From a virus, in the IMG/VR virus record IMGVR_UViG_3300046479_000013, positions 1-61,806 of that record: a DNA stretch of 61,806 nt; one strand, given 5' to 3'. This document shows, piece after piece, positions 49,732 through 49,916 of this stretch. The notes under the pieces were generated by a model. It did no database searches and had not been told where the DNA came from. It saw only the letters and a program-made list of their open reading frames with translations. The position numbers and the translations under genes are program-made. Each line of letters begins with the position of its first letter. Positions within the stretch are counted from its first letter, which is position 1.

Positions 49732-49916
49732 TTTGTCTTGATAAAAGGTCGGCGTCCCAGATAGTATATTTAACGGCGCGGCTACCAGACTTCGCCACCC
49801 CTCGATGAAGTCGAGGGAGGAGGATTTGAACCTCCGACAGAGCAGGGTATATACAAGGCCCATTGCTCCAACCGTGCCCCAAGCAGGATAAGGGACATCC
49901 AGTCGACCAAGACAAA
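49732..49916 (-). ncRNA. Scaffold RNA copy C around a permuted Pro tRNA
   Basis: P1 TTTGTCTTG/CAAGACAAA (9 bp, perfect), then GTCGAC against CCTTTTAT, with GGTCG/CGACC also able to pair, and P2 GTCCC/GGGAC. It lies a few bases downstream of copy I and 17 bases before tRNA-Val. Confidence 0.78.
49774..49885 (-). tRNA. Permuted tRNA-Pro(TGG)
   Basis: Order: anticodon loop and 3' stem, a 36-base variable region with its own hairpin (GAGCA/TGCTC around GGG/CCC), T arm GGAGG-TTCAAAT-CCTCC, acceptor TCCCTCG, A, linker CTTCAT, acceptor CGAGGGG, D arm, then CCG. Joining the ends gives anticodon stem CCGTG/CACGG and loop CTTGGGG with U33 and G37, as in Pro. CCA is not encoded. Confidence 0.72.

What the first reader, a model, noticed from the sequence alone, without database searches (positions are those of the whole stretch)
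49774..49885. Permuted tRNA-Pro(TGG) with a hairpin in its variable region
The rejoined anticodon arm is perfect (CCGTG/CACGG around CTTGGGG), with the G37 expected in Pro tRNAs, and the acceptor strands pair across a six-base linker. A 36-base variable region with its own stem makes it unlike normal Pro tRNA. A standard tRNA-Pro(TGG) also exists at 18580, so this one is a second copy with a different design.
Basis: partly seen in the sequence, partly recalled or inferred. Interest (0 to 1): 0.85.

Follow-up and report, generated by a model that had tools for sequence, protein, structure and literature searches.

The report
Phage Y RNA mimicking a tRNA
The supposed scrambled tRNA gene is best read as one of about ten tRNA-mimicking 'Y RNAs' that this phage carries alongside its own Ro60 protein; it is a known kind of RNA, but this array, and a tRNA-style anticodon loop seen across the wider family, are worth testing.

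Summary
The pairing is real and not chance: on the minus strand a T arm, an acceptor-like stem closed by a short loop and a D arm follow in permuted order (0 of 150 shuffles match). It is not best explained as a permuted tRNA-Pro gene. The true unit is longer (49732-49916, 185 nt): an 8-bp outer stem, GGUCG, an inner stem and UUAUC enclose the tRNA-like part. Nine more units on the same strand (44.5-52.8 kb), interleaved with ordinary tRNAs, share this frame; their outer stems differ in sequence but pair in all 40 cells checked. Some lack the acceptor stem or the whole tRNA part. The window encodes Ro60, the known partner of Y RNAs, and a model built from other Ro phages' Y RNAs, without window sequence, scores two window units at 74 and 66 bits. 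The focal unit itself is divergent (23 bits, within tRNA background; Rfam YrlA 17.6 bits), so its assignment rests on frame, siblings and Ro60. Across phage and bacterial Y RNAs I find a conserved anticodon-like hairpin (7-nt loop, U33, variable triplet), not described in the papers I could read. Verdict: divergent phage Y RNA; anatomy right, interpretation wrong.

The parts
49732..49916 (-). Focal Y RNA unit, 185 nt
   Evidence: Outer stem plus GGTCG/TTATC frame; MFE -66.9 kcal/mol, z -2.82, 0 of 200 shuffles as stable
49909..49916 (-). 5' arm of outer stem, TTTGTCTT
49732..49739 (-). 3' arm of outer stem, AAGACAAA
49904..49908 (-). GGTCG, inferred Ro-binding motif, invariant in all ten units
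   Evidence: binding itself is inferred
49740..49744 (-). 3' TTATC next to the outer stem, shared by the units (TTATC/TTACC/TAATC/TCATC)
49892..49896 (-). Inner stem 5' strand GTCCC, pairs with 49754-49758
49754..49758 (-). Inner stem 3' strand GGGAC
49887..49891 (-). 5' TTATC, family-conserved motif before the anticodon-like arm
49872..49888 (-).
   Evidence: homologous arm in the family
49840..49869 (-). Extra variable-region hairpin GGAGCA..GGG...CCC..TGCTCT
49819..49835 (-). T arm GGAGG-TTCAAAT-CCTCC
49798..49818 (-). Acceptor-like stem TCCCTCGA/TCGAGGGG closed by CTTCA
49779..49797 (-). D arm, loop GAAGTCTGGTA (exact stem register ambiguous)
49924..49994 (-). Sibling Y unit, short, no tRNA-like module
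51862..51997 (-). Sibling Y unit with full permuted module
   Evidence: 73.9 bits with model R1
51741..51853 (-). Sibling Y unit with T and D arms but no acceptor stem
   Evidence: 66.2 bits
47804..47935 (-). Sibling Y unit with T arm, acceptor-like stem and D arm
   Evidence: 34.1 bits
52724..52783 (-). Sibling Y unit, short
52195..52258 (-). Sibling Y unit, short
48698..48822 (-). Sibling Y unit without clear tRNA module
48591..48683 (-). Sibling Y unit without clear tRNA module
44465..44576 (-). Sibling Y unit with a T-arm-like hairpin, tightly between tRNA-Asn and tRNA-Met
29730..31301 (-). Ro60/Rsr protein, 523 aa (TROVE plus Ro60 vWA domain)
   Evidence: Pfam PF05731 6.6e-45, PF25045 1.7e-64

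Best explanation
It is a phage-encoded Y RNA. The paired ends form a basal stem whose GGUCG/UUAUC internal loop is the likely docking site for the phage's own Ro60 ring (inferred from motif and co-occurrence, not shown). The far end is a tRNA-like module in permuted order: anticodon-like arm, variable hairpin, T arm, closed acceptor-like stem, D arm (shown by sequence and pairing). By analogy with Deinococcus, where Y RNA tethers Rsr to PNPase, the module would recruit a partner such as an exoribonuclease or tRNA-binding enzyme, and the RNA would gate or tether Ro60 to steer RNA decay or repair during infection (inferred). No ligation and no aminoacylation are needed. The confidence given is for 'it is a Y RNA'; the tethering role is less certain, about 0.6.
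For: Ro60 in the window. Ten same-strand units with GGTCG...TTANC, 1.07 expected, 0 of 100 shuffles reach it; each closed by its own outer stem, 40 of 40 cells paired with changes on both sides (the 3' arms were found by a search for complementarity, so the 100% is partly by construction, but they sit next to a shared TTATC-like motif). Model R1 from 25 Y RNAs of other Ro phages finds window siblings at 73.9 and 66.2 bits. Strong covariation of the family structure. Permuted modules lie mostly just upstream of Ro genes in other contigs. Full-length matches of 39 bits or more in 10 of 11 Ro phages and none of six phages without Ro. Rfam YrlA is the top-scoring non-tRNA hit on the focal stretch.
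Against: The focal unit scores only 23.1 bits with R1, in the range that ordinary tandem tRNAs reach (20-26 bits), and 17.6 bits with Rfam YrlA, far below the gathering score of 69 (Y RNAs of other Ro phages also stay below it, 28-52 bits). It lies about 18 kb from the Ro gene. No expression or binding data.
Confidence: 0.9

Rival explanations
1. A true permuted tRNA-Pro(TGG) gene: flanks are cut at the anticodon stem, halves ligated, and the linker removed by tRNA end-processing to give a functional tRNA.
For: 7 acceptor pairs with C1-G72 and A73, loop CTTGGGG with U33 and G37, T and D arms all present.
Against: A complete Y-RNA frame encloses it. Sibling at 51741-51853 keeps T and D arms without an acceptor stem. 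Homologues have acceptor-like stems of about 0-9 bp and stable tetraloops. No CCA. The phage already has tRNA-Pro(TGG).
Confidence: 0.04
2. A relic: a decayed or non-expressed Y RNA copy, or remains of tRNA genes.
For: Low model score, mismatch in the anticodon-like arm, odd D-stem register, extra hairpin.
Against: 8-bp outer stem, inner stem, T stem and 8-pair acceptor-like stem all intact; fold z -2.82.
Confidence: 0.05
3. Two neighbouring tRNA fragments that look permuted, as happens between tandem tRNAs of the same acceptor sequence.
For: Such false positives do occur: L004 18816-18874 and partial 27-100 model matches in phages without Ro.
Against: No upstream 5' half or downstream 3' half here, no CCA in the linker, and the flanks pair with each other.
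Confidence: 0.01

Closest known systems
Bacterial Y RNA, YrlA type (Rfam RF02553), partner of Rsr/Ro60; reviewed in PMC8394870
   Same: Basal stem from paired 5' and 3' ends; domain resembling T, acceptor and D arms of tRNA; genome encodes Ro60.
   Different: Rfam score far below cut-off; extra variable-region hairpin; an anticodon-like arm, where PMC8394870 names only D, T and acceptor arms as tRNA-like; ten units in one phage fragment, far from the Ro gene.
Y RNAs beside Ro-like proteins in actinophages (Cashline, Forza, LinStu, Phredrick, Trina)
   Same: Same order of motifs: GGYCG, TTAYC, anticodon-like arm, T arm, closed acceptor-like stem, D arm, TAAA.
   Different: Those lie close to the Ro gene and mostly fit model R1 well (several are in it); the 3' motif near the outer stem differs from the window's TTATC.
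Permuted tRNA genes of algae and archaea (own knowledge)
   Same: 3' half precedes 5' half with a linker between acceptor strands.
   Different: Here the wider family varies or loses the acceptor stem, and conserved flanks form a Y-type basal stem.

Membership tests
Ro60-associated Y RNA (broad class) | 5' and 3' ends pair into a basal stem with conserved motifs | tested here: met
   8-bp outer stem, GGTCG and TTATC shared by ten units; 40/40 cells paired
Ro60-associated Y RNA (broad class) | Ro60 orthologue encoded in the same genome | tested here: met
   ORF 29730-31301, TROVE and Ro60 vWA domains
Ro60-associated Y RNA (broad class) | tRNA-like domain with T, acceptor-like and D arms in permuted order | tested here: met
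   Scanner score 20, shuffles at most 16.5
Ro60-associated Y RNA (broad class) | RNA binds Ro60 in cells | not testable with these tools
   Needs pull-down or CLIP
Rfam RF02553 YrlA as curated | Score at or above the gathering threshold of 69 bits | tested here: not met
   17.6 bits; other Ro-phage Y RNAs reach only 28-52 bits. So not filed as RF02553, only as a Y RNA in the broad sense
Phage Y RNA model R1 (made here) | Score above tRNA background | tested here: inconclusive
   Focal 23.1 bits, background 20-26; two siblings 73.9 and 66.2 bits
Permuted tRNA gene | Homologues keep a chargeable acceptor stem | tested here: not met
   Stem length about 0-9 bp, often tetraloop-closed; absent in sibling 51741-51853
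Permuted tRNA gene | Splicing motif (bulge-helix-bulge) at the junction | tested here: inconclusive
   Flanks pair, but no canonical motif was evident in the fold; no dedicated search was run
Permuted tRNA gene | Ligated, charged mature RNA | not testable with these tools
   Needs RNA data

The most novel reading that the evidence does not exclude
Phage and bacterial Y RNAs carry a true anticodon-arm mimic whose loop keeps U33 and purine 37 while the triplet varies freely. A phage with an array of such RNAs would present a set of different tRNA look-alikes, for instance as decoys or inhibitors for host anticodon nucleases, or to recruit enzymes acting on particular tRNAs to the Ro60 particle.
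Probability: 0.2. Interest if true: 0.75.

Novelty: new member of a known kind. Interest (0 to 1): 0.45.

Why it matters
It turns a puzzling 'permuted tRNA' into a likely Ro60 ribonucleoprotein component and shows that phage Y RNAs can come in arrays hidden among tRNA genes, missed by Rfam cut-offs and tRNA finders. The anticodon-like arm gives a concrete, testable idea of what the tRNA mimicry is for; PMC7790460 already suggested that the YrlA tRNA-like domain could act as a competitive inhibitor of an anticodon nuclease.

Tried and rejected
Exact DNA pattern for the locus in IMG/VR: no hit, own record left out. Neighbouring protein 48816-49619: no relatives. NAMPT neighbours: only distant. 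blastn of the locus in phages: the best matches lie on the neighbouring ordinary tRNA-Val stretch, none covers most of the query. First pattern GGTYGNNNGGN9TTANC too strict, no hits. A permuted group I intron was considered on reading the flanks and dropped: no intron family was reported by Rfam over the locus and the flanks pair as a Y stem. That the window's three Y triplets (TGG, GTT, ACG) all occur among its 30 tRNA anticodons was not counted as evidence, because the tRNA set is large. The primary Y RNA papers (RNA 2014, Structure 2018, Microbiol Spectr 2018) are not held, so what they say on anticodon arms or phage Y RNAs could not be checked. No structure prediction was run: the question is about RNA, and Ro60 is clear by sequence.

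Full report
What is there. On the minus strand the locus reads, 5' to 3': TTTGTCTT-GGTCG-ACTGGAT-GTCCC-TTATC, an anticodon-like stretch CTG-CTTGGGG-CACGG, a 36-base region with its own hairpin, the T arm GGAGG-TTCAAAT-CCTCC, an 8-pair acceptor-like stem TCCCTCGA/TCGAGGGG closed by CTTCA, a D arm with loop GAAGTCTGGTA, TTAAA, then GGGAC, TTATC and AAGACAAA. The unit of 185 nt folds at -66.9 kcal/mol, z -2.82. The window is a 61,806-base IMG/VR virus record, with rIIA/rIIB, tRNA nucleotidyltransferase, primase, 30 tRNAs by ARAGORN and a tmRNA.

What it is. The window encodes Ro60, the known protein partner of Y RNAs. Bacterial Y RNA (YrlA) has a large stem formed by its 5' and 3' ends and a domain like the D, T and acceptor arms of tRNA (PMC8394870). 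Rfam YrlA is the highest-scoring non-tRNA hit over the locus but far below threshold (17.6 bits, E 0.52). 354 phage records hold a Ro-like protein; loci around Ro in several of them contain the same permuted modules, with YrlA matches of 28-52 bits. From 25 such RNAs of other phages I built an alignment with strong covariation (93.5% of cells paired; 107 double-changed cells against 29.5 in shuffles) and a model, R1. The sequences were picked by a scanner that demands paired T and D stems and mostly a paired acceptor-like stem, so covariation in those helices is partly by selection; the inner stem was not a selection criterion.

The window array. R1, which contains no window sequence, finds 51867-51997 (73.9 bits) and 51744-51854 (66.2 bits), and less strongly 47811-47935 (34.1); the focal unit reaches 23.1 bits, within the range that ordinary tRNA neighbours reach. 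The 5' motif GGTCGN{11,15}TTANC, derived from these units, occurs ten times, all on the minus strand, against 1.07 expected; the pattern was written after seeing four of the units, so only the further six are independent. Each unit can be closed by an outer stem of its own sequence lying directly outside GGTCG and a TTATC-like motif; 40 of 40 cells pair, with changes on both sides at all four positions. The 3' arms were located by complementarity, so this figure is partly by construction; the shared motif beside them was only a scoring aid. Five units show no clear permuted module, and 51741-51853 has T and D arms without an acceptor stem. This is hard to reconcile with permuted tRNA genes.

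Controls. Ordinary tandem tRNAs can imitate a permuted module (L004) and give partial model matches up to 50 bits in phages without Ro. Counting only full-length matches, 10 of 11 phages with Ro have one of 39 bits or more, and none of six without Ro does (best 38.1); one control, Mx1, has a weak TROVE hit below cut-off and is left out. The threshold was chosen after seeing the scores, and the Ro phages supplied some of the model's sequences, so this contrast is supportive rather than independent.

The anticodon-like arm. After TTAYC, phage and bacterial Y RNAs tend to form a hairpin with a 7-base loop. It is the best hairpin in 20 of 44 phage and 29 of 62 bacterial sequences (shuffled means 4.0 and 5.7; none of 1000 shuffles reaches the observed count). 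Within these loops U33 is present in 16 of 20 and 25 of 29, purine 37 in 17 and 24, A38 in 17 and 23, while the triplet varies. Several sequences are related, so these counts overstate independence. The focal arm fits with one C-C mismatch. PMC8394870 mentions only D, T and acceptor arms; the primary papers were not available, so I cannot say that the arm is undescribed.

Mechanism. Shown: the anatomy, the array, co-occurrence with Ro60, conservation in relatives. Inferred: Ro60 binding at the GGUCG/UUAUC region; recruitment of a partner by the tRNA-like module, as Deinococcus Y RNA tethers Rsr to PNPase (PMC7790460, PMC6340977). PMC7790460 also proposes that the YrlA module might competitively inhibit an anticodon nuclease. 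A jumbo-phage survey mentions TROVE proteins which in cells form an RNA-repair platform with a tRNA-like partner (PMC7824862), and PMC7765460 notes phages with YrlA, so phage Y RNAs as such are known.

Verdict. The finding is a real structured RNA and most likely a divergent phage Y RNA, not a tRNA-Pro. New member of a known kind; what raises its interest is the array and the anticodon-like arm.

Noticed in passing
L012 2643-2851 (Rhodococcus phage Trina): A 209-nt 'tRNA-OTHER' pseudogene annotated just before the Ro gene overlaps two model R1 matches (2564-2695 and 2779-2904); it looks like a misannotated Y RNA.
   Followed up: partly
window 42475-42550 (-): ARAGORN calls a tRNA-Pyl with anticodon CTA, which would read UAG; a possible amber suppressor.
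   Followed up: no
window 50378-50793 (-): Phage-encoded tmRNA, 97 bits with Rfam RF00023.
   Followed up: no
window 22192-22252 and 50086-50173 (-): Two Rfam tRNA matches that ARAGORN does not list; the first is partial and weak (31.4 bits).
   Followed up: no
window 54238-55830 and 55724-56764 (-): NAD salvage pair: nicotinamide phosphoribosyltransferase and a NadM-like/Nudix protein.
   Followed up: no
L047 7625-7813, L024 7634-7779, L067 7810-7972: Stretches where a second GGYCG...TTATC-like motif lies inside a Y RNA match, as if one Y RNA were nested in or fused with another.
   Followed up: partly
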